Below are positions 9,431-29,330 of a DNA stretch of 64,000 nt, in pieces. A program made the translations under genes and the position numbers. Every line of letters begins with the position of its first letter. Within the stretch, counting starts at the first letter, position 1. A model generated the notes under the pieces. It saw only the letters and a list, made by a program, of their open reading frames with translations. It was not told the DNA's origin and ran no database searches. The DNA is taken from NCBI GenBank assembly GCA_000632805.1, contig CP007444.1:1054001-1118000 (forward strand), given 5' to 3'. The stretch comes from Dyella jiangningensis (GTDB lineage: Bacteria > Pseudomonadota > Gammaproteobacteria > Xanthomonadales > Rhodanobacteraceae).

Positions 9431-9964
9431 ATGGATTCCGCCACCCTACAGGCAGCCGTAGGCTGTGACGCGTCGCATGGCGATACCTACGCTCCGTTCA
9501 TGACGGAGGCCATGCAGAAGTTCGGCATTGGCACGACTGACCGCTAGGCCATGTTCCTTGCTTAGGTGGGGCATGAGTCGGGAAGTCTCCGATATGCCAC
9601 CGAGTTATGGGGTCCGACGCCGGCATAGGAGCGATACGAGGGAAATCCTCAGCTAGGCAACACGTAGCCCGGAGATGGTTTCAAGTTTCGCGGCCGGGGG
9701 CTGATCCAGCTTACCGGTCGCAAGAATTACCAAGCATGCAGTACGGCGCTAGGCGTGGACTTCATCACCCAGCCCGACTTGCTTGCTCAGCCGTATTACG
9801 CCGCACTGTCTGCCGCCTGGTTTTGGGCCAGTCACGGGCTAAACGAAGTTGCCGATACCGGCGATTTCGAGAAAGTAACCAAGATCATCAACGGCGGTTT
9901 GAACGGACAGGCTGACCGCCTTGCACGTCTCGCCCAAGCTTAGAACGCGTTGCAGGGGACGTGA
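9431..9964 (+). CDS. Endolysin, glycoside hydrolase family 19, five TAG codons
   Basis: With TAG read as Gln this is a 177-residue GH19 enzyme that would cut peptidoglycan. Landmarks in order are AMFLA-TAG-VGHESG with the catalytic Glu, ELWGPTPA-TAG-ERYEG, LGNT-TAG-PGDG, then FRGRGLIQLTGRKNY and INGGLNG. In the family the residue before VGHESG and the one in LGNTxPGDG are Gln, so TAG replaces conserved Gln near the active site. TAGs lie at 9,545, 9,563, 9,626, 9,665 and 9,941; the gene also uses CAG eight times and CAA twice. In the standard code only a 38-residue stub would form. Confidence 0.9.
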
Positions 9965-9965
9965 A

Positions 9966-10163
9966 ATGTTGCGAGACGAAGTGATTGATTCGGTGAAGGC
10001 TATGGGCGTTGCGGCCTTTACCGGAGCGAGTTGGCTCAACATCAGCTTCGGCTAGTTCATCACGTTTGTGGGTGGTCTATACACCCTGATCGTGGCAGGT
10101 GAAAAGTTCTACAAGGGCGGCCAATGGCTGCTGAAGAAGTTCAAGAAGCCCCCGGAGGGCTGA
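9966..10163 (+). CDS. Holin-like protein, one TAG
   Basis: The 65-residue protein has one or two hydrophobic segments (VAAFTGASWLNISFG and FITFVGGLYTLIVAGEKFY) and a Lys-rich tail, as in small phage holins. TAG at 10,053 lies inside the membrane region (SFG-TAG-FITF) and would truncate it to 29 residues. The gene begins one base after the endolysin stop. It would form the membrane lesion that lets the endolysin out. A 15-codon frame at 10,166-10,213 follows, with no evident role. Confidence 0.75.
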
Positions 10164-10216
10164 CCATGGCTGATAAAACTGGCTTCAACGCATCGGATCG
10201 GGACGGTATCTGACCT

Positions 10217-10810
10217 ATGCGCACCATCCTGCTGGCTCTAGTCCTCTTTGTCGCAGGGTGCGCATCTAACCCGGTCGGCATGGTGCATGACACCACGCAC
10301 CATCTGGCGATGACAGGATTGTTCGGTCAGGGCAGTTGCAGCGGTACGGCCATCGGTCCTCATGCGATCCTGACAGCTGAACACTGCATATCCGGTGTGT
10401 ACAGCTTGTCAGTAGACGGCAAGACGGTGGCGATCAAGAGTGTGCTGCTTGACCATGCCGACCATGCGATTGTCATCACAGACACATGGTTCGATGACTT
10501 CGCCTATGTGGCCGACGAACCGGGATAGGGCGAGCAGATCTTCATCTGCGGCAATCCCGGCGAGTTGACCGACCAGTGCCGATTCGGTCGGGTGAGTGGG
10601 TATCAGGTCGAAGAGAACCGCCGCTGGACGCTGTACGACATTAACGCGTTCTTCGGTGACTCGGGCTCAGCCATTTTCGACATGCAGGGCCGTATCGTCG
10701 GGGTGGTTTCCATCATGGTTCCTCAGGTCTACGGGCAGGGTTACATGAAGCTGATGGGGGGACTACCGCTGGCATTTACCAAGGAACAATGGACCAAGGC
10801 CCATGGCTAA
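10217..10810 (+). CDS. Trypsin-like serine protease lipoprotein, one TAG
   Basis: The protein opens with a lipoprotein signal (ILLALVLFVAGC, lipobox Cys at residue 15). The chymotrypsin fold is marked by CSGTAIGPHAILTAEHC (catalytic His) and FFGDSGSAIFDMQGRIVGVV (catalytic Ser); a central Asp is likely in LLDHADHAIV. TAG at 10,526 splits it between the two lobes (EPG-TAG-GEQIF), so the Ser is made only by readthrough. The mature protein would sit in the envelope. Position inside the lysis cassette suggests a role in envelope breakdown or exclusion, which is unusual. Confidence 0.82.
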
Positions 10811-10880
10811 GGTCGTCCTCACGTTTGCAGGATTGCTCTGCGTGGTCCTGTATGTCTATTTCAGCAAGCCTTGCGAGTGA
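10803..10880 (+). CDS. 25-aa single-pass membrane peptide
   Basis: A tiny frame overlaps the protease stop and encodes one hydrophobic helix (VLTFAGLLCVVLYVYF) with a charged end. It may be a small lysis accessory such as an antiholin or spanin part. Confidence is limited by size. Confidence 0.45.
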   Translation: MAKVVLTFAGLLCVVLYVYFSKPCE

Positions 10881-10882
10881 TC

Positions 10883-10978: not shown

Positions 10979-10980
10979 CC

Positions 10981-11392
10981 CATGAGCCTCACCGGACTTG
11001 GCGAAGTTTCCGACCTCGCAACGACCATCATCAACAAGTTCTGGCCGGATAAGACATAGGCCGAGAAAGACCAGGCTGCGCTCGCCCTGCAAGAGTTTCA
11101 AGGCGAGCTTGCACAGCTTCAGGGTCAGCTTGAGGTAGACAAGGCTGAGGCATCCAATGCTTCGGTATTCGTTGCTGGCTGGCGCCCCGCTGTGGGCTGG
11201 GTGTGTGCCTTGGCGTTTGGATGGACCTATGTCCTTGCACCTATTGTGGCTTATGCCGCCAAGCTGGCAGGCAGCACGGTTGTATTGCCGGTCCTCGACC
11301 TATCCCAGCTCTCTCCTGTCCTGATGGGCATGTTGGGCCTGGGTGTCATGCGGACCTTTGAGAAGGTCAACGGGATCAAGGCTGGTCACTAA
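10981..11392 (+). CDS. 3TM-type holin, one TAG
   Basis: Read through TAG at 11,057 this is a 136-residue protein. The N-terminal part ends in a Gln-rich helix (QEFQGELAQLQGQLE). It is followed by the conserved GWRPAVGWVCALAFGW segment and further membrane helices at TYVLAPIVAYAA and MGMLGLGVMRTFEK. This matches the family of three-helix holins found in tailed phages and gene transfer agents. The TAG follows WPDKT; in the standard code only 25 residues form and the whole membrane part is lost. Confidence 0.8.
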
Positions 11393-11643
11393 TGTCTGAT
11401 GGGGCGCGCGTAGGTGCAAACGACGGCTCTAACCCGTCTAACGTCGGCGCAATTCCGACCGCCCCCGCCATTGAGGCAAAGAAGGAAAGGGCGCGCAAGT
11501 TGTTTAGCGTACTCGCAAAAGCTGATTTCAGCGCAGAAAGCCAGCTTCCCATATATATCAACAGGGACATATACGTTGACGATTTCACCGGCATCTAGGT
11601 AAGCGAAGACTGGTGGCCCGGGGACGAACATGACACCCCTTGA
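11392..11643 (+). CDS. Hypothetical late protein, one TAG near the end
   Basis: The frame starts in a TAATG overlap and encodes 68 residues up to TAG 11,596. Readthrough adds VSEDWWPGDEHDTP and ends at TGA 11,641-11,643, overlapping the next start by 14 bases. No family is recognised. The acidic, Trp-rich tail looks like a genuine protein end. Confidence 0.55.
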
Positions 11644-11830: not shown

Positions 11831-11864
11831 ACAATGGCGTTCTCATTGAGAACAAGACTGAACA

Positions 11865-12134
11865 ATGGCCTTCAAAAAGGGACAATCAGGCAATCCGGGC
11901 GGTCGTCCTAAGCTATTGGGCGAAGTCTAGGAGGCTGCCAGGAAGTTCACTGCTGACGCGGTGAAGACGCTGGCAGAGATCATGAAGGACAAGGAATAGC
12001 CGCCTGCTGCGCGCGTGAAGGCGTCGGAAGTCCTGCTAGATCGTGGCTGGGGCAAGCCGGGCCAGTCGCTTGAAATGACTGGCAAGGATGGTGGGCCGCT
12101 TGTTATCGCCACCAATTTGGATGAGCAGGTTTGA
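11865..12134 (+). CDS. Small terminase-like protein, two TAGs
   Basis: The 89-residue protein begins FKKGQSGNPGGRPKLLGEV, the start motif of a small phage DNA-packaging/DUF5681-like family. It continues with a helix (ARRKFTADAV-like) and PAARVKASEVLLDRGWGKPG. TAGs at 11,928 (LGEV-TAG-EAA) and 11,997 (KDKE-TAG-PPAAR) sit in helices; Gln fits both. It is followed directly by the large terminase, whose TTG start overlaps its TGA. The role as DNA-recognition subunit is inferred from position and family. Confidence 0.78.
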
Positions 12135-13474
12135 AGTTCACCGCCAAGCAGGAAGCCGCCTAGACCGTTCTAGCTGGCCCTGCCACGCACATCATGCTGT
12201 TTGGCGGGTCGCGTAGTGGCAAGACCTTCCTGCTGGTGCGGAACGTCGTGATGCGCGCCCTGAAGGCTCCCAAGAGTCGGCACGCCATCCTTCGTTTCCG
12301 GTTCAACCACGTGAAGGCGTCAATTGTCGCCGACACGTTTCCGAAGGTAATGGACCTGTGCTTCAAGGGCGTCCGCTGGGACTTGAACAAGACCGAGTGG
12401 TTTGCTGAGCTGCCCAACGGCAGCTAGATTTGGTTTGCGGGGCTGGACGACAAGGAACGCACCGAGAAGATCCTCGGCCAGGAATACGCCACCATTTATC
12501 TGAACGAGTGTTCACAGATTCCATGGGGAAGCGTTGGCGTGGCGCTGACGCGACTGGCTCAGAAGGTGACGCAGCAGATTGAGGGTCGGGAAGATAGGCC
12601 GCTTCAGCCCCGTATGTACTATGACTGCAATCCGCCGAGTAAGGCGCATTGGTCGTATCTGGTCTTCATCCAGAAGCGAGATCCCGAGACGAAGGCTAAT
12701 CTGCCCCGTCCTGACGATTACGCGAACTTCCAGATCAACCCGCAGGACAACGCGGAGAATCTGTCGGATGGCTACCTCGACACGCTCAGCGGCCTTAGTG
12801 CGCGGCTTAGGAAGCGATTCCTAGACGGCAACTTTGCCGATGCGACGCCCAACCAGCTGTTCGCAGCGGAGACTATCGACAAGTGGAGAGCGCATGAGCT
12901 TCCTGACATGGTTAGGGTCATTGTTGGGGTCGATCCTTCCGGATCAGGGGATGTGGACAACGCTGATAACGATGCCATCGGTATCGTCGTCGGCGGACTT
13001 GGTACTGACGGCAACGCCTACCTGCTTGAAGATTGCACGGTCAAAGCAGGCCCCAAAACCTGGGGCGATATCGCTGCGAGTGCCTACGACCGACATTCTG
13101 CGGACATTGTTGTTGGCGAAATCAACTTCGGCGGCGCGATGGTCAAGCACGTCATCGAAACCGCAAGGCCGCGAACGCCGTTCAAGTAGGTCACGGCATC
13201 ACGCGGAAAGGCCGTACGTGCAGAACCCTTTTCCGCTCTGTATGAGCAAGGCAAGATTCGTCACGCAGGCACCTTTAACGAACTGGAAGACGAGCTGACG
13301 GCCTTCTCTACCGTGGGCTATCTCGGCGAATACTCCCCGAACCGTGCCGATGCGTGGATTTGGGTACTGACTGAACTGTTCCCGGGCATTGTGAAGCCAC
13401 GCAAAGAGAAAACCGAGGTCAAGATGCCGCTCCGTCTCAATCTGTCAAACACCAACACGGGCTGGATGCAGTGA
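12131..13474 (+). CDS. Large terminase, three TAGs
   Basis: A TTG start overlapping the upstream TGA gives 447 residues. Walker A is GGSRSGKT at about residue 26 and the Walker B-like segment is TIYLNECSQIPW. The nuclease domain begins VGVDPSGSGDVDNADND and includes the acidic cluster of the RNase H fold. TAGs at 12,161 (EAA-TAG-T), 12,425 (NGS-TAG-IWFAG) and 13,187 (PFK-TAG-VTASRGK) fall where related terminases carry Gln or polar residues. Without readthrough the ATPase and nuclease would be in separate fragments. It drives DNA into the procapsid through the portal. Confidence 0.9.
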
Positions 13475-15534
13475 AAGACGAGGAAAAGATCGTCCGCGAG
13501 GCCTAGAAGCGCTTCAAGCGCTGCCAGGATTGGGAGTCCCAGGCCCGTGACAACTTCCTGGAAGACTATAAGTTCGCCAATGGTGACGCGGACAATGGCT
13601 ACCAGTGGCCGAACGAGTTGCGCAAGACGCGATCGATCGACAACCGTCCCGCCCTGACAATCAACAAGACCCGTCAACACAACCTACAGATCATCAACGA
13701 CTGCCGGTAGAACAAGGCGTCGGTCAGGGTGAGCCCGGTAGGCGGTGGCGCGACCAAGGAGGCCGCAGACGTCTTTGAGGGGATGGTTCGGCATATCGAG
13801 TACATCTCCAACGCCCAAAGCGTCTACGACACGGCCAACACCTTCCAGGTCTAGGCGGGCATTGGCTACTGGCGCGTTGTCACCGACTACCCGAACGATA
13901 AGACGTTCGACCAGGAAATCTACCTACGCCGCGTCCGTGACCCGCTGTCGGTTTATCTGGACCCGGATATCAACGAGTTTGACGGTTCGGATGCGCGTTT
14001 CGGCTTCGTCTTCGAAGACATGCCGCGCGAAATCTTCGAGAAGGAATATCCGAAGCTCAAGGATCAGGTGCCGCGCAACACCCTGAACGAGGGTGGCGAT
14101 TGGGTCACGAAAGACCATGTGCGTGTCGCTGAGTATTACCGCAAGACGGAGAAGAAAGACCTACTCATCTCGCTGGCTGATGGCGTGGTCAAGGCTTCCG
14201 ACCTTCCGCCTGAGATTCGCGACGAGCTGCTGGCCGATCCGAACACCAAATCCCGCGACATTATCGAGCAGCAGATCGAGTGGTATCTGATCGCAGGCTC
14301 GGAGATTGCCGAAAAGCGGGAATGGCTTGGCAAGTACGTCCCGATTGTCCGCGTGGTGGGCGAAGAAACGGTCATTGACGGCCAGCTGGACCGTAAGGGT
14401 CATACGCGAGCCCTGAAAGACCCGCAGCGCACTTACAACTACTGGACCTCGGCAGCGGTCGAACACGTCGCCTTGCAGTCAAAGACGCCCTATATCGCTC
14501 CCGCACAGGCGATTGAGGGTTACGAGACGTATTGGGAATCGGCCAACCGCGATAACTTCTCGGTGCTGCCCTACAACGGTCTGGATGACGCAGGCAATCC
14601 AATTGCTCCCCCGCAGCGCCAGGCAGCGCCCGAATTCTCGCCGGCCTACATGCAGGGTATGCAGGTCGCTGCACAGGAGATGATGCTTGTCTCCGGCCAG
14701 TACGAGTCTCAGATGGGCGAGAAGTCCAATGAGCGTACTGGCATTGCGATTCAGGAACGGCAGCGCAAGGCGGACAACTCGACCTATCACTATGTGGATC
14801 ATCAGGCTGTCGCTATCCGGTTCACGGGCCGCATCCTGATCGACCTGATCCCGAAGATTTACGACACGCAGCGCGTGATTCGCATCCTGGCGGAGAACGG
14901 TGACCAGTCGCAGGTGATGATCGACCCCACAGCCCAGCAGGCTTATCAGGCTCAGCAAGGCGCCGTAGAGGCCATCTTCAACCCGCGCGTGGGTGAGTAT
15001 GACGTCATCTCTGAAGTCGGTCCGGCATTCGCTACCAAGCGTGAGGAAGCGTTCAACGCCCTGACGCAGATTGCCACGCAGTCGCCCGAGCTGATGCAGG
15101 TTGCTGGTGACTTGGTCATGAAGGCCGCTGACTTCCCGATGGCGGAAGAGTTGGCCGAACGTCTCAAGAACATGGTGCCGCCGCAGGCCTTGGGTGGTCC
15201 GAGTCCGCAGGTCATGCAGCTTCAGCAGCAGCTCCAAGCCTGTCAGAAGGCGCTAGAGAGCGTCACGCAGCATCTTGCCGACGAGAAGAATAGGCGCACG
15301 TCGGTGGAGCAGCAGAAGGATATCGACGCATTCAAGGCGGAAACAGACCGCATGGATGCCCTGAAGGATGTTAACCCGGCTGTGCTTGAGCCCATCCTCA
15401 AGAAGCTGGTGTACGAGTCATTGCGTGAAAGTCTAAGTCCTGTCGTGGCCGCGAGCGTTACGGCCATGGCTGCCGCGTAGAAACCCGAACCGGAAGGGGA
15501 AACCGGGCCTAATCCAACATAGAGCGAGTCATGA
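13471..15534 (+). CDS. Portal protein, P22-type, five TAGs
   Basis: GTG 13,471 overlaps the terminase stop. The 687-residue product resembles the P22 portal family (about 725 aa): NRPALTINKTRQHNLQIIND, EGMVRHIEYISNAQSVYDTA, TFQV-TAG-AGIGYWR, then EKSNERTGIAIQERQR and a C-terminal Gln-rich barrel. TAGs at 13,504, 13,708 (DCR-TAG-NK) and 13,852 sit in highly conserved positions that are Gln in relatives I recall. The last two (15,478, 15,520) extend the protein to a TGA that overlaps the scaffold ATG, as do other gene pairs here. Confidence 0.92.
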
Positions 15535-16282: not shown

Positions 16283-17491
16283 ATGTCTAATACTCTGCTT
16301 ACCCGCTAGGAAATCACCCGAGAGGCGGTACGACTGTTCCGCAACTCCAACGCGTTCATCGCATCCATCGACAAGTAGTACAGCGACGAATTCGCCCGCG
16401 ACGGTGCGAAGATCGGCAACTCGCTGCGTATCCGCCTGCCCAATGACTTCACCGTAACCACGGGCACGGTCACTGCCTCGCCGCAGAACACCGTCGAACA
16501 GAACACCACGCTGACCCTGACCAATCAGGACCACGTGGACTTGCAGTACAGCTCGCAGGATCTGACCCTGACGTTGCAGGACTACTCGGAGCGCATCCTC
16601 GCTCCGGCTGTTAACAACCTGGCGGCTGTCGTGGCGGCTAACGTCATGTCGGGTGCGGAGTCGATCTGTAACTACGTCTCCAAGCTCAACGGCAGTGCGG
16701 TGGATACCCCGACCGCTAACGAGTGGCTGCTTGCTGGTGCCTATCTGGACCAGAACTCGGCCCCGCGTGGTCGTCGTCGCGCCATCCTCGACCCGCTGAC
16801 CCAGGCTCGCACGGTTTCCAGTCTGGCCGGCCTGTTCAACCCGACCGGCACCGTCTCCAAGCAGTTCACCTCGGGTGAAATGATGGGTCCGGCGCTGGGC
16901 ATTGAGCAGTGGGCAATGGACCAGACTGTCCTCAAGCACACCACGGGCGCCTACAGCACGCTGGGTACGGTGTCGGGTGCAAGCCAGACGGGTTCCAGCA
17001 TCACCACCTCGGCGCTGGCTGGTCCGCTCAAGAAGGGCGATATCATCACCTTTGCGGGTGTGAACGCGGTCAACCGCCTGACCAAGAACTCGGTCGGTCA
17101 GCTGCGTCAGTTCGTGGTCACGGCTGATGTGGCCGGTGGTGCAACCTCGATCCCGATTTATCCGGCGCTGATTCCGGGCCCGTCCGTGCAGTACCAGACG
17201 GTTGACGTGTCTCCGGCGAGTGGTGCGGCTATCACGGTCGTGTCGCAGGCGAGCGAAGTGTATCGCAAGAACTTCGTGCTGCGTCCTGAGGCCGTGACCC
17301 TGGCAACTGCCGACCTGGTGATGCCGAAGGGTGTGCATGACGCCGGTCGTGAGTCCTACGACGGTATCTCCATGCGCATGGTCAGTCAGTACAACGTCTC
17401 GACGGATCAGTTCATCACCCGTCTGGACATTCTGTACGGCTGGCAGTGGGTGCGACCGGAGTGGGCGTGCGTCGTGGCCGACAAGCTGTAA
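16283..17491 (+). CDS. Major coat protein, P22 gp5-like, two TAGs
   Basis: The 402-residue protein begins MSNTLLTR-TAG-EITREAV and LFRNSNAFIASIDK-TAG-YSDEF, matching the N-arm of P22-type coat proteins. It continues with DGAKIGNSLRIRLPNDF and GPALGIEQWAMDQTVLKHTT, and closes with YNVSTDQFITRLDILYGW. Both TAGs (16,307 and 16,376) are in the first 32 codons, so no coat protein can be made without readthrough. A RBS lies in GAGAGAATCTC before ATG. Length is close to P22 gp5 (430). Confidence 0.92.
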
Positions 17492-17536: not shown

Positions 17537-17836
17537 ATGCCTAACTATTCTGGCGTTTCTACCGACGAGCTTGCCGGCGTTAAGGTCGATACCGTGGTTA
17601 ACGGTTCATCCTAGCCCGTCATCTCGGTCAGCCCCACTGGTTCCCCGTTCACTTACACCGCTCCCGCTTACGGCACGCTCAATATCTCGGGTGGCACCGT
17701 GTCTCAGGTCGCCATCAAGCGTGGCGGCGTGAGTACCAACCTCGGTGGCGTAGTGGGTCATTTCCTGGCGTCCAAGGGTGACCAGTACGTCATCACCTAT
17801 TCGGTGGCCCCGACCCTGAGCTTTATCCCGAACTGA
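17537..17836 (+). CDS. Small late protein sharing a beta domain with the 20,154 gene, one TAG
   Basis: A 99-residue protein with TAG at 17,612 (NGSS-TAG-PVIS). Its C-terminal 65 residues (GSPFTYTAPAYGTLNISGGT to SVAPTLSFIPN) resemble the end of the gene at 20,154-20,711 (ASPFTYTATTGGEVAISGGT to TAAPTMNFLPL). This suggests a shared beta-sandwich used on the head or tail, perhaps as decoration. No named family is recognised. Confidence 0.7.
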
Positions 17837-17837: not shown

Positions 17838-17981
17838 ATGGACTATTCCAAGCTGGTTTTCCCGCCCTACGAGTACCATGAATACCCTAAATGGGTGGAG
17901 GGCAAGGATGGCCCTGTGATTGTGCAGAATGCCGAGGAAGAAGCGGCTGTGAAGAAACCAACCAAGCGCGAGACTAAGTAA
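17838..17981 (+). CDS. Small late protein (47 aa)
   Basis: The frame starts two bases after the previous stop and overlaps the next start by one base. It begins MDYSKLVFPPYEYHEYPKW and ends in a Lys/Glu-rich tail. Short proteins of this type often sit after phage coat genes; function is not known. Confidence 0.6.
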   Translation: MDYSKLVFPPYEYHEYPKWVEGKDGPVIVQNAEEEAAVKKPTKRETK

Positions 17982-18703
17982 TGTCCAATCCGCTACCGAA
18001 TGCCAGCAGCATCATCAATCTCGCGCTGAAGATGGCCGGCGTTCTCGGTATCGGCCAAACGGCGTCGGCGGAAGATTCCAACGACGCCCTCACCTTGCTT
18101 AACGCCATGCTGGCCTAGTGGCAGCGTAAGCGTTGGCTGGTTTACTCGCTGGATGATGTGAGCTTTGCTGCCACGGGTGCGCAGTCCTATACCGTGGGTG
18201 CAGGGCAGAGCATCAACATCACGCGACCGGATCGCATCGAAGCAGCCTTTGTTCGCCTGGTGAATGGCCCGCAGGCCGTGGACTATCCGCTGGACGTGCT
18301 GGGAAGCCGCGAGGACTACAACAAGATCGCCCTCAAAGGCTTGTCCACGTTCCCGCAGATCGCGTTCTATGACGCCGCTTACCCTTACGGCAACCTCTAT
18401 ATCTGGCCGGCGCCGACCAATCAGTACACCATCCATATCTCTGTCAAGACGCAGCTCAGCAGCTTTGCCTCGCTGACCTAGAACATGGTGTTGCCGCCTG
18501 AATATCAGGAGGCGATCATCTTCAATCTCGCAGCTCGTCTTCGGCCTATGTACGGCCTGCCGCCCGAGCAGTCCATCATCGCGCTGGCTAAGTCGTCCCT
18601 AAGCGTGATCCGTGGGGCGAATGCGCAGATTCCACGCCTGACGTTACCAGTTCAGGTGACGCGAGACTCGCTCTACAACATTTTTGGCGATCAGAGCTAC
18701 TGA
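17981..18703 (+). CDS. Head-to-tail adaptor, P22 gp4-like, two TAGs
   Basis: The 240-residue protein opens with helices (IINLALKMAGVLGIGQTASA, DALTLLNAMLA-TAG-WQRKR) typical of the P22 gp4 packaged-DNA stabiliser. It then has a beta-rich centre and LPPEYQEAIIFNLAARL near the end. TAG at 18,116 is in LNAMLAxWQ, a place occupied by Gln or Glu in such proteins; the second is at 18,479. The protein would close the portal after packaging, ahead of gp10. Confidence 0.82.
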
Positions 18704-20157
18704 TGCAAATCAGCCTGCTATCGGGTGCCTATGAGGCGCGCAGCATCATTGCATCGGCTCAGCGATGCGTGAACCTGTACCCGCAAGTGAATCAATTGGA
18801 ATCGTTCCAGGGCATGCCGTAGACGGCAGGCTCACCGACGCTCATCACGCATTACCCGACGCCAGGGCTGACGTTGCTTGCCACGGCTACCTCTAACGTG
18901 TGGCGCTGCCTCTATAAGGCTACCAACGGCACGCTGTATGGTGTTTGTGGCTAGAACGTCTATTCGATCAGCCCATCTTGGGCTTTGACGCTTCTCGGCA
19001 CCATTGCCGGCAATACGACGCCGTGTTCCATGGCGGACAACGGCACCACCCTTGTACTTGTTGACGGGACAACCAGTGGCTACACCATCACGCTCGCGAC
19101 AGGCGTCTTTGCTCCGCTGGTTGATCCGACGGGTGCATTTGTGGGCGCTGATCGCGTTAGGTATCTGGACACCTTCTTCATCTTCAACAAAAAAGGCACG
19201 CCGATCTTCTACACGTCGCTGAGCAATAGCACAACGTTTGATCCGACGTACTTTGCCAGCAAGACCGGCGCGGGCGATATCCTCGTGTCTATCGAGGTCA
19301 TGCACCGGGAAATCTGGCTGCTTGGCACCAAGACCACGGAAATCTGGTTTGATGCCGGTTCGGCAGCGTTCCCGTTCCAGTCTGTACCGGGCGCCTTCAT
19401 CCAGCACGGATGCGTTGCCCCGGAATCGGTTTGCACGCAGGACATGGCGGTCTTCTGGCTATCCCAGGACCCTCAGGGTCAGGCCATTGTTCTGATGGGC
19501 AGCAACTACAACGCCACGCGCATCTCGACCCATGCGATTGAACATGCGTTTGCTCAGTACAGTACGATTTCTGACGCCATCGGCTACATCTACCAGGAAG
19601 AAGGGCATATGTTCTATGTCCTCAACTTCCCGATCGCCGATGCGACGTGGGTTTACGACATTTCGTCCGGCTTGTGGCACGAACGGACGTGGAATGATAC
19701 CAATGGCTTCGAACATCGCCACCGCTCCAACGTCTTTGCCTTTGCTTACGGCACTTATGTCGTCGGTGACTGGCAAAATGGCAATCTGTACGCTCTTGAC
19801 CAGAACAACTACACAGACAACGGGGCGCCAATTGTCCGCACTCGCGCTTTCCCGCACGTCCTGAACGAGCTGAAACGCGTCATCTATCGAAAGTTTGTGG
19901 CAGATATACAGACGGGCGCCCAAACCGATCCGACACAGGCTGCTCCGCTCATATCGCTTCGTTGGAGCAATGATCGTGGGGCGAGTTGGAGCAACTACAT
20001 TACCTAGCCCTTGGGGGCAGTGGGTCAGTTCATCCAGCAGGTTCAGTTCTTGCGTCTTGGGTTGTCCCGTGACCGCGTGTTTGAGCTGTCATGGTCCTCT
20101 CCGGTGATGACGGCGCTTAATGGTGCCTACGTGGAAGTGGAGGCATCGGCGTCATGA
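18703..20157 (+). CDS. Packaged-DNA stabilisation protein, P22 gp10-like, three TAGs
   Basis: The 484-residue protein (P22 gp10 is 472) begins QISLLSGAYEARSIIASAQR then CVNLYPQVNQ. It has repeated beta blades (VRYLDTFFIFNKKGTP; ISVEVMHREIWLLGTKTTE-like; GGWQNGNLYALDQ-like), consistent with a propeller that extends the tail hub. TAGs are at 18,820 (GMP-TAG-TAG, where the second TAG is Thr-Ala-Gly by frame), 18,952 (VCG-TAG-NVYSI) and 20,005 (NYIT-TAG-PLGAVG). The stop overlaps the next ATG. Confidence 0.85.
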
Positions 20158-20711
20158 GCAACTTTCCGCAGCTCAATATGCCATTCGTGGACAAGAGCGG
20201 GAACATTACGACGCCCTGGATGCGCCTGCTTCAGCAGATGTGGCTTAATCAGGGTGGCGCGAGTGGAAGCCTCGCTGCGCCGGCTGCTGGTAATGCCAAT
20301 CAGCAGTTTAACGTTGCCACGGCCACTTCTAACTCTAATGCCGTTCCCCTTGCCCAGGCTGACAGCCGCTATGCCCCCGTGGCCGGCAATCAAACGCAGT
20401 CGTTTCAGGTGGGCAATGCCGCTGCCGGAAGCAATCAGGCCATTCGTCGCTCACAGGTGGAGGCGCTTTTCCCGTCCTTTGCCGGTGCCGGCGCAGCCAT
20501 CGTTCCGATTACCGTCACAGCCTCACCTTTCACCTACACCGCGACGACTGGCGGTGAGGTGGCTATCTCCGGTGGAACCATCACATCTGTTCAGATCACC
20601 CGTGGCGCCAGTACGATAACGGTCGGAACGGGAAACATCTCTGTGCGTAACGGCGACGCCGTGAAGGTGACCTATACCGCCGCACCTACCATGAATTTCT
20701 TGCCCCTATGA
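20154..20711 (+). CDS. Tail-associated protein without TAG
   Basis: A 185-residue protein that starts FPQLNMPFVDKSGNITTPWM, a common opening of podoviral neck or fibre accessory proteins, followed by an Ala/Asn/Gln-rich stretch and a C-terminal beta domain shared with the 17,537 gene. It has many CAG codons but no TAG. Both ends overlap neighbouring genes by ATGA. The exact role is unknown. Confidence 0.7.
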   Translation: MSNFPQLNMPFVDKSGNITTPWMRLLQQMWLNQGGASGSLAAPAAGNANQQFNVATATSNSNAVPLAQADSRYAPVAGNQTQSFQVGNAAAGSNQAIRRSQVEALFPSFAGAGAAIVPITVTASPFTYTATTGGEVAISGGTITSVQITRGASTITVGTGNISVRNGDAVKVTYTAAPTMNFLPL

Positions 20712-21307
20712 AAAACTTTCTGCGCCTTGCGCAAGGCATCGACGTGATGCCTCTGCTTGCCAAGATCACCCGAAATCCCGAGTGGTGGACGGAAGATACT
20801 TATCTGCGGTCCTATCCTTAGGGGCCGTTCGGTGAGATTGACAGCCTGATCCTCAGGTTCCCTCCGCGCACGGTCTTTGAGATGCAGGAAGATGCGGAGA
20901 AGCATCTCAATGCGCCGGGGTATGACCAGCACGAATGCGTCGATCAGGAGATTTACGGGCGATTGCCGGAGGCCCGTGCTCTTGTCATGCAGTTGATGGC
21001 ACGGGTGGGTGGTACGCGTTTGGGCCGAGTCATCATCAACCGTATCCAGCCCGGTGGCCGCATCTTCCAGCATGCGGATACACCGGCCCACGCCAACTAC
21101 TGGCACCGTCACCATATCGTCCTGTAGAGCGCGCCGGGCGTCGTCTTTGAAGCAGGCGACGAGCAGGTTTACATGGCACCCGGTGAATTGTGGTGGTTCG
21201 ACAACGGCAAGGAAAGGGCCGATGGTTCTGAACCGCCTAAACATCAAGTCTGGAACAACAGCGCCGTTGAGCGCATCCATATGATTGTTGACGTGAGGAT
21301 TGCCTGA
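20708..21307 (+). CDS. Aspartyl/asparaginyl beta-hydroxylase-like 2OG-Fe(II) oxygenase, two TAGs
   Basis: The 199-residue protein has a cupin core with HAD (FQHADTPAHANYWHRHHIVL) and a distal His (PKHQVWNNSAVERIHMI), the metal triad of 2OG-dependent dioxygenases; RIH may bind 2-oxoglutarate. TAGs are at 20,819 (SYP-TAG-GPF) and 21,125 (HIVL-TAG-SAPG); without readthrough the distal His is lost. Related enzymes occur in several phages with unknown targets. It may hydroxylate a virion or host protein. Confidence 0.8.
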
Positions 21308-21833: not shown

Positions 21834-21835
21834 CC

Positions 21836-22517: not shown

Positions 22518-23942
22518 ATGGTCGATATTGATGCAAGCATTCCGTTGCGCGCTGGCGCCAATGTTCAGCCGGTTAATCCGCTGTAGAACTTTGCGCAGGC
22601 GACGGAACTCGCCAATGCCCAGCAAAACCTACTTAATCAGCGCGCCCAGCAGGCGGCTGGACAAGAGTTTCAGGCATCCATTCGCCCGGATGGAACGCTA
22701 GATACCAATCTGCTCAACCAAAGGCTAGCCGCTAATCCGCTGGCTGCGCGTGCCGCTATTGGTGCCTCACAGGCGGGTCAGACCAACGTGCAGACGGCCC
22801 TTTCCAATTTGGGCCTGACGCAGGAATAGGGATATCAGCGAGCCACATACGTGGGTAATGCCCTTGGCTCAATTCTCGCCACGGGCAAGCCTGTCTCGAT
22901 GAAGGACGTGCAGAATGTTGTAGGTGAGCTGGTGGCGACACATGCCATGCCAGCAAAGGAGGGGGCACAGCTCATTGCGCAGGCCGCGTCGGTTCCTCCC
23001 GAGCAATTGACCTCCATGGCTCAGCACTTTTACGCCATGGCGCAGCATTCGGCTTAGATGCTAGCACCGACCGTAAGCGCTATCGATAATGGACCGAATA
23101 TCGGTCTGGTCAACACCAACCAGATGGCGGGTCCGGTGGGCCAGCCGATCGCCACGTTCGGTAAGGGACTTTCTCCGAGCGAGAACGCCCAACAGGTTTC
23201 CGTGGTTGGCCCGAACAACACGCCTAGCATCATGTCGCTTCAGGACGTGCTCAGGGCTCAGCAGGCCAGCAAGCAGGGTGGAAGGGGTGGCTTGGTGCAG
23301 ACCGGCCTTGCGCCTGGCGTTTCCTCCGCTATTGAGGTGGCCTCCAAGGGCGGCGCGGAAATGGGCCAGCAGCTCATTCAAGAGGCTTCGGCCCTTCCGC
23401 AGCAACGCGCAGCGCTTCAGCAGGTTCAGTCGGAAATCGATGCGGCCAATCCGGGCCCGCTCAACGACAAGCTGGCGAAGCTTGGCGGCGTGCTCACGCA
23501 GTTGGGTATCCCGAGTGAGCAGGCGACGGCCTCTCAGCTCATGCATAAGGCCAGCATGTTGAACGTCCTTGGCACGGTGTCCAGCGGACTCGGCACGCCC
23601 ACGGACGGCAAGATGACCGCCGTGCTTACCTCCACGCCTAACGGTGATATGACGCCGCAGGCGGCTAAGGCAGCCACAGGCATGTTGTTGGGCCTGACCG
23701 ACTACAAGCAGGCCAAGGCTGATGCGTGGCAGAAGTATCAGGAACAGAACGGCCCGCAGTCGTTCCAGCAGTTCCAGTCGGAATGGAACAAGACGGTCCC
23801 CAATGCTGCCGCTTTCCAGTTCAACCATCTGCCGCAGGCCGAGCAGGCGAAGTATTGGAACTCGCTGGACAAGAGCCAGAAACAACAGCTCCTTGGCACC
23901 ATGTCTGCTTTCGGCATGCAGTTGACGAAGAATGGCAAGTGA
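22518..23942 (+). CDS. Second ejection protein (P22 gp20-like place), three TAGs
   Basis: The 474-residue protein is Ala/Gln-rich and helical, with LLNQRAQQAAGQEFQ, MKDVQNVVGELVATHAMPA and FQQFQSEWNKTVPN. TAGs lie at 22,584 (NPL-TAG-NFAQA), 22,827 (LTQE-TAG-GYQ) and 23,055. The region after the third TAG could be misread as a separate gene starting at 23,058, but the frame is continuous. Its end overlaps the next ATG by 11 bases. Assignment rests on composition and position before the transglycosylase. Confidence 0.75.
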
Positions 23943-26184
23943 TTACAGCCAACTGATCGCATCGGCGGAGTAGAAGTACAACCTGCCGCCTGGTGTACTT
24001 GCCGGTCTTGTCCAGACGGAGAGCGGGGGTAATCCGCGCGCCACGTCTAACCAAGGTGCTCGCGGTCTGACGCAGATCATGCCGGCGAACGATGCCTCTC
24101 TAGGCGTCAACAATGCCTATGACCCTGCATAGAGCATTGATGCGGGAGCCAAGCTTCTGGCGGAAAACCTCAAGGCCAGCAAGGGCGATGTGATCCAAGC
24201 CCTAAAGATGTACCACGGCGGACCCGATACGTCGCAGTGGGGTCCGAAGACGAAAGCCTATCCTGGCAAGGTGCTATCCAACATGCCGCAGACGCAAGCC
24301 CAATCGGTTGATGACGTTGATGCCATGTTTGGCGCGCAGCCGTCTTCTTCGGCATCGCTGGCACAAGCTCCCAAGGCCATGAGCGTGGAAGATGCAGATG
24401 CCATGTTTGCGCCGCAGGCATCGGCTCAGCCTGAGGCCAAGCAAAGCTGGTCGGATTACCTCAAGAGCCAATATGGCTTGGTGGTCAACCAGTACAAGCA
24501 GGCCGGCCAGAAGATCCTCGACGCTAACAACAAGCTTGGCGCTGGTATTGCGTATGGCGTAAAGCAGGTGATCGACAAGCCTGCCGAATGGGTCATCAAC
24601 CATGAGGGAAATCTTCCTCAACAGGCGCAAAACTTCCTGACGGACCATGGTTTCTCGCCCGAAACAGCCTAGACGTTGTTCCCGATGGGCAAGCAAAACA
24701 ACCTTGCCGGAATTATCAGTGGGCAGCCGTCACAAGCTCAGGCTCAGGATGATGCGATCAAGGCCAATCTCTTGGCTCAATATGGCGATACGCCGCAGTT
24801 TGAGATTGGTAAGCTTGCCGGACAGACTGCCGTAACCGCCCCCGCTTTGCAGTTTGGCGGGGCATTGTTCGGTACGGGCGCCAAGGCTCTAGCGGGTGGG
24901 GCGAGTGAACTGTCTCCGGCGCTTGGGCGTGTCGTGGATAGCGCAGCCAACTTCCTACAGGGGCAGGGTGGTGCTGGGGCTTCTGGTGTGGGTGGTGTCC
25001 TGACCCGTGCCGCTTCTAAGGCCGCTGCTGGTGCCTCTGGTGGCGCTGCCTTTAATGCCCTTACCGGCGCTCCTGTGGGTGCTGGCGCAGGCATTGGCGC
25101 CGCGATTGGTGGCGCTGCCAGCCCGTTGGGGGATGTAGCGCAGAAGGCTGCGCAATCGGCCATTCCCATGCTGGATGCGGAAACACGCGCACTAGCGCAG
25201 AAGGCTGAAAACCTCGGCATCAAGCTTCGTGCCCCGCAGATCACGGACGCGCCCTTTGTTCGATATGCCGATTCGACACTACGCAATCTTCCCGCCATGG
25301 GCTATGGCGAGACGGATGCTCTGTTGCGCGGACAATTCAACAACGCCCTGGCGAAGCAGATGGGTCAGGACGCCCCAAAGATCACGCCGCAGGTGATGCA
25401 GAACGCCAAGACGACCTTGGGCAACAAGTACGATGAACTCGTGCCTCAGTTGGCCGTAAAGCCGGATGAAACGTTGTTGTCGAAGCTTGCCGAAATTCAG
25501 GGAACCGCATCGCAGACAATTACCGATCAGGAGCTTGGCCTCGTCAACAAGCAGATTGACAACGTTCTGAATGGCTTCAAGGATGGTCAGGATATGCCGG
25601 GCGAATATGCCCATAACCTGATCAAGAAGGGTTCGCCGCTAGATCGCCTGATGAACTCGACCAATCCCAACGTGGCTCACATCGTTGGTGATATTCGCTC
25701 GGCCCTGAACGACGCCATGCAGCGCAGCGCACCGGATCAGGTTGCCAAGGAACTGGCGCAGACCAATGCGCAATACAAGGCCATGAAGACCATTGAGCCA
25801 CTGGTGGCTAAATCGCCTACGGGCGATATCAGCCCTGCCGCTCTTATGACGCAGGTCAGCAAAAACTATGGAGGCATGGCCTACAACGGCGGTGGCGACA
25901 TGGGCGACCTGGCCCGTATTGGGCAACGCTTCCTGAAGGAACCGCCGCAGAGTGGCACGAGTCCGCGCCAGATGATCATGAATGCGCTTGGCGGTATCGG
26001 TGGCATCGGAGCTGTTGCAGCTAGTCCCGAGTTGGGACTTTCGCATATCGCTGCTGGCGCCGGTCTTGCTGGAACAGTGGCAGCGGGTCGCGGCCTCAAG
26101 TAGCTGATCAACAGCGACGCCTATTACAACGCCCTGATGGGTCGCCCCAATGGCGAAGTGACCAACTGGCTATTGCAGCGTTAA
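23932..26184 (+). CDS. Ejection protein with lytic transglycosylase domain, four TAGs
   Basis: The 750-residue protein begins with an SLT-type lytic transglycosylase domain: LPPGVLAGLVQTESGGNPRA with the catalytic Glu, ARGLTQIMP, AYDPA-TAG-SIDAGAKLL and ALKMYHGG. In the family the residue before SIDAGA is usually Gln or Glu. TAGs are at 23,971, 24,130, 24,670 and 26,101. The centre is Gly/Ala-rich and may insert into membranes; the rest is helical. It would open the peptidoglycan for DNA entry (P22 gp16-like place). Confidence 0.85.
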
Positions 26185-26429: not shown

Positions 26430-26440
26430 CGGACAACCTC

Positions 26441-27028
26441 ATGAGCTATCGAATCCCTAACGGCAAAAGCCAGTTTTTCGATGCCAATGGAAACCCTCTC
26501 TCTGGCGGTAGTGTAGCGTATTATCAGCCCGGTACGTTGACACCGGTAAATACGTATCAAGATTAGGCACTTACAACGATCAACCCGAATCCCATTACGC
26601 TGGATTCGGCAGGCGAATGTGTAGCCTGGGGACCGGATTCCACGGTATACCGGCAGATCGTCAAGGACGCTTAGGGTAATCAGATTTGGGACGCCGTGAC
26701 GGGTATTGGTGGTTTTGCTAATCCCATGACGAGCCAGGGTGATTTGATTGTCGGTGGAGCCTCTGGCGCAGCTTCTAGGCTCGCCATTGGGGCGAACCGA
26801 CAGGTTCCCATCTCCAACGGCACGACGCTCGCATATGGCTCCCTGACGGCCTCTGACGTGGGTGCCGATCCTGCCGGGGCAGCCTCTAGCCTTGGCGGTA
26901 TTGGTGGGCAGGCCACGCTTGTTCTTTCCGGCTACAGCATCGGAACCAATGTTGGCGTGATTACCGTCTCGGCCTCCGGTCCTTCCGGTACGCCGGTCAA
27001 TGGTTAGATTTGGTTCCAGCACGCATGA
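26441..27028 (+). CDS. Tail protein with P22-type head-binding domain, three TAGs
   Basis: The 195-residue protein begins with a P22 tailspike-like head-binding domain (GKSQFFDANGNPLSGGSVAY, TLTPVNTYQD-TAG-ALTTINPNP, IVKDA-TAG-GNQIWDAVT) and ends in a beta-rich stretch. The same domain starts the 27,522 gene, where the second TAG position is CAA. TAGs are at 26,564, 26,672 and 27,005. It would bind the tail hub and perhaps carry the next protein. Confidence 0.83.
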
Positions 27029-27522
27029 TGTATCTCGGTAATGGAGGATCTTGGGCCTAGCTCACGAACCTTTACATCGGTGTGGGCGGCGCATGGAAGC
27101 AGATCACAGGCGCTTGGATTGGCGTTAATGGTTCGTGGAAGTCGCTCACCTAGCTTCCACTGAGTGCTTCGGCTAGTCCATCCTCGCTCTCTGCCTCAGG
27201 ACATAGCAATAGCCCCACATCAACGCGCCTTAGCCTGACCACGGCATCAACCACCGTATCTGTTTCGAATGGCAGTGGCAGTTATTCCCATAGCTGGTCG
27301 GTATCGTTCAACCCAAGCGGATCGACGGACAGCAGCGGTACGTGCTCGGCAAATTCCTCAACGTCGGCAACCACCACGTTCACCGGCCAGAGCTGTAACG
27401 GTGTGAATTCACCCGGCACAGATAACTATGTCGCTGTCGATACCATTACGGATCTTGTGACAGGAGCCTAGACAACGGTATCCGTCCCCATCGCGCTTAC
27501 CAACACTTTCGTGGGTCCATAA
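27025..27522 (+). CDS. Tail-associated Ser/Thr-rich protein, three TAGs
   Basis: The 165-residue protein has two GxW motifs (YIGVGGAWKQITGAWIGVNG) and then a Ser/Thr-rich Ig-like part (TASTTVSVSNGSGSYSHSW, ATTTFTGQSCNG). TAGs lie at 27,058 (SWA-TAG-LTN), 27,151 (SLT-TAG-LPL) and 27,469 (VTGA-TAG-TTVS). It overlaps both flanking tail genes. The Ig-like part suggests surface adhesion. ATG 27,028 is an alternative start. Confidence 0.72.
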
Positions 27523-29330
27523 TGAGCTTGCCACTTACCAATGCCAAAAAACAGTATCAGGACCAGAACGGCAACCCGCTGGCGGGTGGATCGGTTGCCT
27601 ATTACATTCCTTCGACCTTGACGCCTGTCAATACCTATCAGGACTAGGCATTGACCATCCTAAATCCGAGCCCCGTTATTCTCGATGCCAATGGTCAGGC
27701 GGTCGCATGGATTGCGGACGGCACAAGCGTTCGGGAAATCGTTAAAGATGCCCAAGGCAATCAAATCTGGGATTAGGTTACCGCTATTGGGTATGGGGCA
27801 AGTGGCCTAGGGGCATCTTCCGGATCGACCTTGGTCGGGTTTATTCAAGCGGGCACGGGAGCCTAGCAGCGCACCTCTCAGGATAAGATGCGCGATTTCA
27901 TCAGCGTTAAGGATTATGGCGCTAAGGGCGATGGTATTACAGACGATACCACCGCCATCTAGAACACCATCAACTATGCCACCTCGGTAGGCAAGGCTGC
28001 GTACTTCCCGGCGGGAACCTACCTTACGGGACTGCTGACTCTTCCTGCCAACACGATACTGATCGGTGAGAATGCCGAGAAAACAACTCTCAAGCTCAAG
28101 AATGGCGCCAACACGAGCGTCATTCAGTCGGCCAGTTTCGCTGCCAACGCGCTTGGTGGCTCCAACAACCTGGGCGATGTCGGCATCATCATTCATCGCC
28201 TGTCAATCGACGGCAACGCGGCCAACAACACCAGCTCGGGCAACTTGGTCGGTGTCGGTATCGGCATCTATGGCGAGCGTCCGGTGCTCCGCGAGGTCTA
28301 CATCAAGAACACGGCAGGGCATGGCCTGCTGACGGATGGCCCATCGTCCGGTGCTCCGGCTGGCGACTACTTCAGTATGGAAGGCCATTTCGAACGGATC
28401 TTCATTGATACGGTGCAGAAACACGGCTGGTACTTCAACGGGCCCCATGACAGCACCATCCTGCATTGCGTCGCGGTTGATGCAGGGCAGGCTACAACGA
28501 ATACCTGGGACGCGCTCTACGCCAACAGTCCGGCCCGATGGTTCAGCTTCCACGGATGGACTCGAAGCCTCGGCAAGCGTCACCGCTATGCGGCAAACAT
28601 CCAGTCCGGTGCAGCGGGTAGCCAGTTTATCGGTGGTCAGTTTGAAGGTTCCGAGTCGGCCAACGTTAACCTGCTGGCCAATAACTGCTAGTTTGATAAC
28701 ACTTGCAACTATTACGCCCCTTTCGGCACCTACAACATCTTCATGGGAGGCCAGTGCTCTGGCAATGATGTGCGTGGCTGGGTTGGTCCGGCGCAGGGTG
28801 GCCCCAACCCTGTCGGTCTGGCGATCAGCAACACCGGCACAGGTAACGTGATCGGCAATAACGTCGATCTCGTCATGTCGGGGCAATTGAACTCGAACAT
28901 CTTCTTCGGTTCCGACGACAAAGGCCACAACACGATCAGGGTCAATGCCTATCAGACTTCGGGGTCGAGGTATACCGGCACGCCCCATGCATCTGACGTC
29001 ATCGAGCTGAATCTATTTGGCAGCACGACCCCAAGTCTTACTAATGGTCGTCCCGTGGCATGGGTGAGCTTCGATGGCACCGTGGCGACACCAACGATCA
29101 AGTCATCATTCAACGTGCTTAGTGTGACCAAGGCAAGCACTGGCCACTATACGATCAACTTCGTTGGCACCATAACGGGTGGCACCGCAACAGTCGTGGC
29201 AAGTTCCGATGCCCTTCATGTCGCTGGAGCACCTTACGCCAACAACACGACCAGTCAGGATATCGTCTGCAACAACCTTAGCGGCGTTGCTGCTGATGCC
29301 ATGGTGCATGTCAGCATATATTCAATCTGA
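27522..29330 (+). CDS. Tailspike with P22 head-binding domain and beta-helix, five TAGs
   Basis: The 602-residue protein (P22 gp9 is 666) has a head-binding domain (residues 1-115), then VKDYGAKGDGITDDTTAI-TAG-NTI, the pectate-lyase-3-like entry of a right-handed beta-helix, and a C-terminal beta cap. In GDGxTDDTxAIQ relatives the residue after AI is Gln, exactly where TAG 27,960 sits. The other TAGs are 27,645, 27,774, 27,864 and 28,689. It probably binds and cuts host O-polysaccharide. Its end overlaps the convergent Lar-like gene by nine bases. Confidence 0.9.

What the first reader, a model, noticed from the sequence alone, without database searches (positions are those of the whole stretch)
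9431..29330. Amber-recoded lytic genes: TAG is read as glutamine across the late half of a P22-like prophage
Read in the standard code, 21 of the late genes are cut by TAG. Read with TAG=Gln, all become full-length with intact domains. First bases of the 54 TAGs: 9545, 9563, 9626, 9665, 9941, 10053, 10526, 11057, 11596, 11928, 11997, 12161, 12425, 13187, 13504, 13708, 13852, 15478, 15520, 15648, 16307, 16376, 17612, 18116, 18479, 18820, 18952, 20005, 20819, 21125, 21714, 21923, 22088, 22097, 22226, 22409, 22584, 22827, 23055, 23971, 24130, 24670, 26101, 26564, 26672, 27005, 27058, 27151, 27469, 27645, 27774, 27864, 27960, 28689. I found no in-frame TAA or TGA and no frameshift inside these genes. 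Stop-codon recoding (code 15, TAG=Gln) is known in other phage groups, mostly large gut phages. A temperate P22-like phage in a high-GC gammaproteobacterium would be a new setting, as far as I know.
Basis: partly seen in the sequence, partly recalled or inferred. Interest (0 to 1): 0.97.

Follow-up and report, generated by a model that had tools for sequence, protein, structure and literature searches.

The report
Prophage with a late-gene amber code
A dormant P22-like virus in a relative of Rhodanobacter has TAG stop codons inside 21 of its 23 late genes, often where related viruses have glutamine, and carries among them a small tRNA-like gene that is predicted to read TAG as glutamine, which would likely keep its virion and lysis proteins from being made until the virus awakens.

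Summary
Confirmed and extended. All 54 listed TAGs are real and in frame; 21 of 23 late ORFs carry at least one. Homologous columns name Gln for TAG (38 scorable sites, +47.0 nats, runner-up -11.5; +38.6 against -9.6 with the query masked and duplicates dropped). Selection is equally strong before and after the first TAG (dN/dS 0.108 and 0.103). Relatives, among them a prophage-like region of Rhodanobacter glycinis S10, are also recoded, with TAG, CAG and CAA interchanging. Between holin and terminase genes, relatives carry a CUA tRNA; the window has a reduced one at 11400-11470, unseen by default ARAGORN and by Rfam, with paired acceptor, anticodon and T stems, encoded CCA, G73 and an open 1-72 pair. 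It is probably transcribed with the late genes. TAGs are skewed to the 5' parts of genes in three phages. Recoded prophages in standard-code hosts are already reported, so this is a new variant of a known kind. Decoding and the lysogeny-lock role are inferred, not shown.

The parts
11400..11470 (+). candidate amber-suppressor tRNA gene, anticodon CUA, 71 nt with encoded CCA; reduced D arm, T loop CGCAATT
   Evidence: ARAGORN only at lowered threshold; acceptor pairs 2-71 to 7-66, 5 of 5 anticodon and 5 of 5 T-stem pairs, T1.C72 open, G73; MFE fold is cloverleaf-shaped, with five acceptor pairs, not better than shuffles; only hit to a cloverleaf+CTA+CCA scan in the window, 0 in four other 20-kb stretches of the genome, 0 in 200 shuffles of 30 kb (criteria set after seeing it); model R1 built without it hits it at 18.9 bits
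9431..9964 (+). endolysin (GH19 type), 5 TAG
   Evidence: PHROG 181 endolysin, PF00182; TAG count
9966..10163 (+). small late protein (holin-like by position and look only), 1 TAG
   Evidence: no family hit; TAG count
10217..10810 (+). trypsin-like protease of the lysis cassette, 1 TAG
   Evidence: PF13365, PHROG 9683
10982..11392 (+). 3-TM holin, 1 TAG
   Evidence: PF11351, PHROG 3427 holin
11392..11643 (+). ORF with 1 TAG whose 5' part is the tRNA gene; a 24-residue match in L058
11630..11830 (+). small late ORF without TAG
   Evidence: 94% identical in L058
11865..12134 (+). terminase small subunit, 2 TAG
   Evidence: PHROG 10899 (weak) and 15261
12131..13474 (+). terminase large subunit, 3 TAG
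   Evidence: PHROG 979
13471..15534 (+). P22-type portal, 5 TAG
   Evidence: PF16510 556.8 bits
15531..16265 (+). scaffolding protein, 1 TAG
   Evidence: PHROG 8865
16283..17491 (+). P22-type coat protein, 2 TAG
   Evidence: PF11651 139.8 bits, PHROG 283
17537..17836 (+). late ORF, 1 TAG
   Evidence: PHROG 31370 weak
17981..18703 (+). head-tail adaptor-like, 2 TAG
   Evidence: PHROG 12985, 637
18703..20157 (+). head closure Hc3-type, 3 TAG
   Evidence: PHROG 578
20154..20711 (+). late ORF without TAG (its homologues in L058 and L137 have one each)
20708..21307 (+). Asp/Asn beta-hydroxylase-like protein, 2 TAG
   Evidence: PF05118
21378..21833 (+). GNAT acetyltransferase, 1 TAG
   Evidence: PF00583
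21836..22504 (+). DNA ejection protein, 5 TAG
   Evidence: PHROG 598
22518..23942 (+). late protein between ejection-protein genes, 3 TAG
   Evidence: no family hit
23932..26184 (+). ejection protein with SLT transglycosylase domain, 4 TAG
   Evidence: PF01464, PHROG 26400
26441..27028 (+). tail-associated protein, 3 TAG
   Evidence: PHROG 26190
27010..27522 (+). late ORF, 3 TAG
   Evidence: PHROG 25859
27522..29330 (+). tail spike, pectate-lyase-like, 5 TAG
   Evidence: PF12708, PHROG 14558
4998..5279 (+). early HNH-type gene with an in-frame TAG at 5148 (exception to the late-only pattern)
   Evidence: PHROG 131
29664..29713 (.). attR: 50-bp copy of the 3' part of tRNA-Arg(CCT); attL is outside the window at L002:10194-10243
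   Evidence: integrase L002:10322-11317 minus strand, PF00589

Best explanation
A temperate P22-like prophage has in-frame TAG codons in 21 of its 23 late genes and a CUA-anticodon tRNA-like gene between its holin and terminase genes, and the predicted mechanism is that this tRNA, likely charged with glutamine and likely made only when the late genes are transcribed, reads those TAGs as glutamine. In the lysogen, which has host release factor RF1 and no CUA tRNA among the 51 tRNA genes that Rfam finds, leaked late messages would end early, because the TAGs sit preferentially in the 5' parts of genes; this is inferred. After induction the late transcript would carry both the messages and the tRNA, so decoding would rise with late transcription. 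Shown: the TAG positions, their alignment to Gln, purifying selection past them, conservation in relatives, and the tRNA-like gene's position and helices. Inferred: that the tRNA is expressed, charged with Gln and decodes UAG; that it is co-transcribed; that the effect is regulatory.
For: 54 of 54 TAGs in frame in 21 of 23 late ORFs. Codon inference TAG=Gln: +47.0 nats, next Ser -11.5; 38 sites; 1000 of 1000 bootstraps; control 60 of 61 sense codons; with TAGs masked in the query and identical homologues dropped, +38.6 against -9.6 over 37 sites. dN/dS against the L058 contig 0.108 before the first TAG (960 codons, including the two genes without TAG) and 0.103 after it (4801 codons). At window TAG sites eight relatives with TAG have TAG, CAG or CAA in 122 of 172 cells; L058 itself has TAG at 22 of the 39 sites aligned. 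CUA tRNA upstream of the terminase in L058, L060, L071, L137 and in L279, a TAG-bearing phage with another portal family; of 81 loci with more than 1100 nt upstream of terL, the 71 that are not from these contigs or the window's own have none by default ARAGORN. Window tRNA; in the 5.4-Mb genome model R1 gave 23 hits, 22 of them Rfam tRNA genes and the other this one (compared by eye). Among 46 host tRNA sequences only the two tRNA-Gln combine T1 and G73; the candidate has both, with C72 where they have A72. 5' bias of TAG in three phages, p 0.001, 0.002 and below 0.0003. None of 20 leftward early ORFs ends in TAG.
Against: The window's tRNA is atypical: Rfam's tRNA model does not report it even in a 111-base search, default ARAGORN misses it, the T loop lacks T54 and T55, the D arm is short; it could be decaying or inactive. 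Its fold is not better than shuffles (z -0.85, 40 of 200 at least as good). R1 alone is weak (E 0.09 over 20 sources, where an ordinary tRNA-Leu scored higher; E 1.51 genome-wide, below 21 ordinary tRNAs). The scan used criteria set after the candidate was seen. 10 of 38 scored TAG columns disfavour Gln (11 of 37) and 16 of 54 sites had under 3 homologues. Four of the eight relatives counted as recoded have only 1 to 3 TAGs (L071, L145, L146, L147), while seven other loci show a single TAA or TGA, so single stops are weak evidence. The TAG at 5148 lies in an early gene at a Pro-type column. In L137 the protease gene upstream of the tRNA has no TAG. GTA shows a 5' shift nearly as large as TAG (0.094 against 0.117), and CAA in the window is shifted too (p 0.012; not in L058 or L137), so a general codon ramp may explain part of the bias. 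The promoter and terminator scan gave nothing above shuffles; one of its two terminator-like sites, 10826-10852, would lie between lysis genes and tRNA.
Confidence: 0.8

Rival explanations
1. The prophage was recoded, but this copy has lost its decoder: the reduced tRNA at 11400-11470 is a decaying gene, and the prophage can no longer make its late proteins.
For: Non-canonical T loop and short D arm, no Rfam or default ARAGORN hit; the tRNAs of L058, L060, L071 and L137 in the same place are recognised by default.
Against: Acceptor (2 to 7), anticodon and T stems are fully paired in spite of many changes against relatives; L058 and L060 also have an unusual T loop, ATCGTTG; the late ORFs remain full-length and selected.
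Confidence: 0.13
2. The TAGs are read by something else, such as a host near-cognate Gln tRNA or a suppressor elsewhere in the cell, and the tRNA-like element is irrelevant.
For: The window's element is weak by every profile. PMC9610469 reports a CTA tRNA in only 13% of 285 TAG-recoded genomes (passage).
Against: 51 Rfam tRNA genes in the host genome, none with CUA anticodon; CUA tRNAs in the same place in L058, L060, L071 and L137, the other TAG-bearing P22-like contigs that contain the interval.
Confidence: 0.08
3. The late genes are pseudogenes with TAGs from biased C-to-T mutation or systematic miscalling of CAG.
For: CAG to TAG is one transition, and CAG is the commonest codon at these sites in relatives.
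Against: A separately assembled metagenome contig (L058) has TAG at 22 of 39 aligned sites at 74 to 87% DNA identity; equal dN/dS past the TAGs; CAA and CGA did not give TAA or TGA in the same frames, which stay open over full-length homologues.
Confidence: 0.01
4. TAG reads as Gln, but the recoding is neutral drift tolerated by a phage suppressor and has no regulatory role. (Overlaps with the best explanation except for the regulatory part.)
For: TAG share of Gln-type codons varies from 1 to 17% among relatives with TAG; TAG ends only 1 of 55 sampled host ORFs, so suppression would cost the host little; part of the 5' skew may be a codon ramp.
Against: TAG is frequent in late genes and nearly absent from early ones and skewed to the 5' parts in three phages; 20 of 22 window late genes are hit against 16.5 expected (p 0.016), though L058 (20 of 22, p 0.06) and L137 (7 of 10, p 0.96) do not show that excess.
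Confidence: 0.35

Closest known systems
TAG-recoded (code 15) gut phages: crAss-like, Lak, phAss-1 and others
   Same: In-frame TAG mainly in structural and lysis genes, phage CUA tRNAs in many (PMC10607447, introduction read); Gln at TAG detected in peptides (PMC9523058, one passage)
   Different: Described suppressor-tRNA phages are mostly large, 100-600 kb (passage of PMC13059738); this one is 39.5 kb, temperate, with a P22-type head, in a Rhodanobacter relative
Recoded prophages in standard-code hosts (Borges 2022, as cited in passages of PMC10746230, and in PMC10607447)
   Same: Integrated phage with another code in a standard-code host; a lysogeny-to-lysis role already proposed
   Different: Host group and P22-type virion; a reduced decoder tRNA between lysis and packaging genes; 5' skew of TAG measured. 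The primary paper could not be read. PMC12454387 counts 38 of 10,742 pig-gut prophages with alternative codes (passages), hosts' codes not seen by me
Theta-ribozyme-linked suppressor tRNAs of gut phages (PMC10879173, abstract and passages)
   Same: Suppressor tRNA tied to late gene expression
   Different: No HDV-like ribozyme reported by Rfam beside the tRNA; CCA is encoded here
Phage P22 (recalled)
   Same: Portal and coat families, ejection proteins, tail spike, integration at a tRNA gene, lysis genes before packaging genes
   Different: GH19-type endolysin and protease in the lysis cassette, a CUA tRNA before the terminase, TAG codons in late genes

Membership tests
TAG=Gln recoded phages | in-frame TAG in many genes that are otherwise full-length | tested here: met
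   54 TAG in 21 of 23 late ORFs, with family matches spanning them
TAG=Gln recoded phages | TAG columns conserved as Gln in homologues | tested here: met
   with 10 of 38 and 11 of 37 columns against
TAG=Gln recoded phages | phage-borne CUA tRNA | tested here: inconclusive
   clear in L058, L060, L071, L137; atypical in the window
TAG=Gln recoded phages | host uses the standard code | tested here: met
   RF1 at 537.9 bits; no host CUA tRNA among 51; 1 of 55 sampled host ORFs ends in TAG
TAG=Gln recoded phages | Gln found at TAG in protein | not testable with these tools
   needs mass spectrometry
Gln-accepting suppressor tRNA | G73, weak 1-72 pair, G2-C71, G3-C70, CUA anticodon (GlnRS elements recalled) | tested here: met
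   window, L058, L060, L071 all; L137 has C3-G70
Canonical tRNA | TTC-type T loop and full D arm | tested here: not met
   T loop CGCAATT, 15 nt between acceptor and anticodon stems
P22-like temperate podovirus | P22-type portal and coat, ejection proteins, tail spike | tested here: met
P22-like temperate podovirus | integrase and att repeat | tested here: met
P22-like temperate podovirus | short-tailed virion, inducible | not testable with these tools
   needs induction and microscopy
Theta-ribozyme-linked suppressor tRNA | HDV-like ribozyme next to the tRNA | tested here: inconclusive
   no Rfam hit; I did not check that Rfam holds theta ribozymes

The most novel reading that the evidence does not exclude
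The late operon is a self-contained code switch: a miniature suppressor tRNA encoded among the messages it decodes makes virion and lysis proteins untranslatable in the lysogen and translatable only together, and this lysis-tRNA block moves between phages with different heads. Reduced tRNAs like this one would explain many recoded phages reported as having no suppressor tRNA.
Probability: 0.4. Interest if true: 0.8.

Novelty: new variant of a known kind. Interest (0 to 1): 0.66.

Why it matters
The recoded phages in the papers I saw are mainly large or from gut metagenomes. This is a small temperate phage in a sequenced bacterium, with a recoded kin region in a named strain (Rhodanobacter glycinis S10), so the idea that recoding guards late gene expression could be tested by induction in culture. 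It also shows that a likely decoder tRNA can escape ARAGORN and Rfam yet be found by position and relatives, which bears on the report that only 13% of 285 TAG-recoded gut genomes have a CTA tRNA (PMC9610469, passage). Annotation in the standard code would cut most of the late genes.

Tried and rejected
Default ARAGORN and Rfam on the window (Rfam: bases 1-37000) and 40 kb upstream found only tRNA-Leu(CAA) and tRNA-Arg(CCT) as tRNAs. ARAGORN with introns gave nothing more at default threshold. A TCTAA...TTCRANTC pattern over the genome gave 4 matches (reversed-pattern control 4 forward and 3 reverse) and no CUA tRNA. In the order, 4 of 398 genomes matched TerL at E <= 0.001, the other three at 40% identity or less; one of these (G119) was listed with 1 TAG inside, and its 2.3-kb locus has no tRNA. 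In the family, 2 of 197 matched the coat protein, the second at 37% without stops. Of 6 named genome loci with TerL, only L137 is recoded. The 15-base anticodon-arm pattern gave 34 viral stretches; apart from the window's own contig only L279 has a CUA tRNA. A wider tRNA pattern gave 4, of which L369 has two CUA predictions but no match to this phage's proteins. TAA reported at one TerL site by blastn was not in frame in tblastn. TerL tree: one clade of the six recoded rows not rejected (p-AU 0.972), but two changes on the free tree; the number of origins is left open. The 5.8-billion-protein search and structure prediction were not used.

Full report
Observation. The ORFs were drawn to end at TAA or TGA, so the lack of internal TAA and TGA is by construction; their full-length family matches are not. 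The late genes hold 403 Gln-type codons (CAG 290, CAA 59, TAG 54). Early ORFs were drawn in the standard code, so TAG can show only at their ends: 2 of 19 rightward (5148 and 6413) and 0 of 20 leftward ORFs end in TAG. Counting both as sense codons against 203 CAG and CAA, Fisher p = 2.3e-8; with one it was 1.9e-9.

What carries it. The element is a prophage. A 50-bp identical repeat of the 3' part of tRNA-Arg(CCT) flanks it (L002:10194-10243 and window 29664-29713), next to an integrase; the length is 39,520 bases. An ORF with a helix-turn-helix look, judged by eye only, lies near the control region (L257:1326-1853). Portal and coat belong to the P22 Pfam families. The window is part of a single 5,396,991-base contig, given as 100% complete and 8.39% contaminated. 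Its 16S rRNA (Rfam 1595 bits) is 96% identical over 1475 bases to that of the genome of Rhodanobacter glycinis S10, so I place the host as a relative of Rhodanobacter.

What TAG means. For 38 of 54 sites with at least three homologues in loci without recoding, profile log-odds sum to +47.0 nats for Gln, -11.5 for Ser and -14.2 for Glu; Gln wins 1000 of 1000 bootstraps. The same procedure assigned 60 of 61 sense codons correctly (TTA, one site, failed). Gln is the top residue at 20 of 38 sites and disfavoured at 10. The query had Gln at the TAGs and homologues were not weighted; with X at the TAGs and identical homologues dropped the result is +38.6 for Gln against -9.6 for Ser over 37 sites, top at 17, disfavoured at 11. 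Between the window and the L058 contig, dN/dS is 0.108 over 960 codons before the first window TAG (251 of them from the two genes without TAG) and 0.103 over 4801 codons after it. So the parts after the TAGs are selected as protein.

Relatives. The TerL scan of viral contigs kept 80 of 301 relatives. Beside the window's own contig, L058 (86% DNA identity over 6.4 kb, 74 to 87% over its pieces), L059/L143, L060 and L071 carry in-frame TAG, as does L137 from R. glycinis S10, 1 of 6 named genome loci. L145, L146 and L147 have 3, 2 and 1. As background, four other loci have one TAA each and three more one TAA or TGA each, so the contigs with one to three TAGs are weak witnesses, except that L071 has a CUA tRNA. 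At window TAG sites these eight relatives have TAG, CAG or CAA in 122 of 172 cells. TAG share ranges from 1 to 17% of Gln-type codons in contigs with TAG and is 0 in L062, L070, L149 and L150. TerL rows do not reject one recoded clade (p-AU 0.972), but the free tree needs two changes. L279 bears TAG in portal, terminase and scaffold genes, with a portal of another family (PHROG 1216) and a CUA tRNA between protease and terminase genes.

The decoder. ARAGORN finds CUA tRNAs upstream of the terminase in L058, L060, L071 and L137. L059/L143, L145, L146 and L147 do not reach this interval. Of 81 loci with more than 1100 nt upstream of terL, four are the window's own contig (no hit by default), six are these four contigs (all with a CUA tRNA) and 71 others have none; two of the 71 have other tRNAs. 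The window holds at 11400-11470 a 71-nt cloverleaf: acceptor pairs 2-71 to 7-66, five anticodon and five T-stem pairs, CUA anticodon, encoded CCA. A scan for such a structure, with criteria set after seeing it, has one hit in the window, none in four other 20-kb stretches of the genome (both strands; one of them holds the prophage's left part) and none in 200 mononucleotide shuffles of window bases 1-30000. A covariance model from the four relatives, not including the window, hits it at 18.9 bits (E 0.0011 in 4 kb without filters, 0.09 over 20 sources, 1.51 genome-wide); genome-wide it has 23 hits, 22 of them ordinary tRNA genes and the other this one (in one search 150 of 3114 candidates were scored). 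Against it stand Rfam's silence, the T loop, the short D arm and a fold no better than shuffles. Position 1 is T with C72 in five of five sequences, with G73; among 46 host tRNA sequences only the two tRNA-Gln combine T1 and G73, with A72. GlnRS identity elements are recalled knowledge. No CUA anticodon occurs among the 51 tRNA genes that Rfam finds in the genome. RF1 is present. One of 55 host ORFs, chosen by length and GC3, ends in TAG.

How it likely works. The tRNA gene lies between lysis and packaging genes on the same strand. The scan of 8400-12300 found no promoter-like and two terminator-like sites, neither above shuffles, so joint transcription is inferred. TAGs lie earlier in genes than random Gln codons: mean relative position 0.379 against 0.485 (window, p 0.001), 0.393 against 0.487 (L058 contig, p 0.002), 0.284 against 0.496 (L137, ten genes, p below 0.0003) (gene starts in the relatives were chosen to match the window's). 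Pooled, TAG has a 5' shift of 0.117; the largest among 54 sense codons is GTA at 0.094, and CAA is shifted in the window (p 0.012) though not in the other two, so a codon ramp may contribute. The reading is a lock: unsuppressed messages give short fragments. The TAG at 5148, where the L058 and L137 contigs have Pro and L115 Val, does not fit a late-only rule; in L137 the upstream protease gene is free of TAG.

Known ground. Alternative codes in prophages of standard-code hosts are reported (passage of PMC10746230), 38 of 10,742 pig-gut prophages use alternative codes (passages of PMC12454387), and a lysogeny-to-lysis role is proposed (PMC10607447, introduction read). The source paper, Borges 2022, was not held. 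The listings of my searches showed no P22-like recoded phage of Gammaproteobacteria; most subscription papers are not in that library. I therefore call it a new variant of a known kind.

Noticed in passing
window 5148 (gene 4998-5279): In-frame TAG in an early HNH-type gene, at a column that is Pro or Val in relatives; either a truncated early gene or one that also depends on the decoder.
   Followed up: partly
window 20708-21307 and 21378-21833: An Asp/Asn beta-hydroxylase-like gene and a GNAT acetyltransferase gene sit inside the virion operon and are 97 to 99% identical in L058.
   Followed up: no
L058:9350-9439, L060:17-106: The CUA tRNAs of these two contigs have a long variable region of 19 nt and an unusual T loop ATCGTTG.
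   Followed up: partly
L279:5744-5818 (minus strand): A TAG-bearing phage with a different portal family shares the protease-tRNA(CUA) neighbourhood, which suggests module exchange.
   Followed up: partly
L369:3592-3665 and 4230-4299 (minus strand): A 163-kb viral contig has two CUA tRNA predictions 0.6 kb apart.
   Followed up: no
L055:10001-10075: A low-scoring host tRNA-Gly(TCC) copy whose anticodon loop reads CGTCCCC by eye, without the usual T at position 33.
   Followed up: no
L058:3802-4161: An early gene ends TAG, one codon, TGA, while its window homologue ends TAA: a backed-up TAG stop outside the late genes.
   Followed up: no
window 17537-17836 and 20154-20711; 26441-27028 and 27522-29330: Two pairs of late genes share a domain (PHROG 31370; PHROG 26190), as if parts of structural genes had been duplicated.
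   Followed up: no
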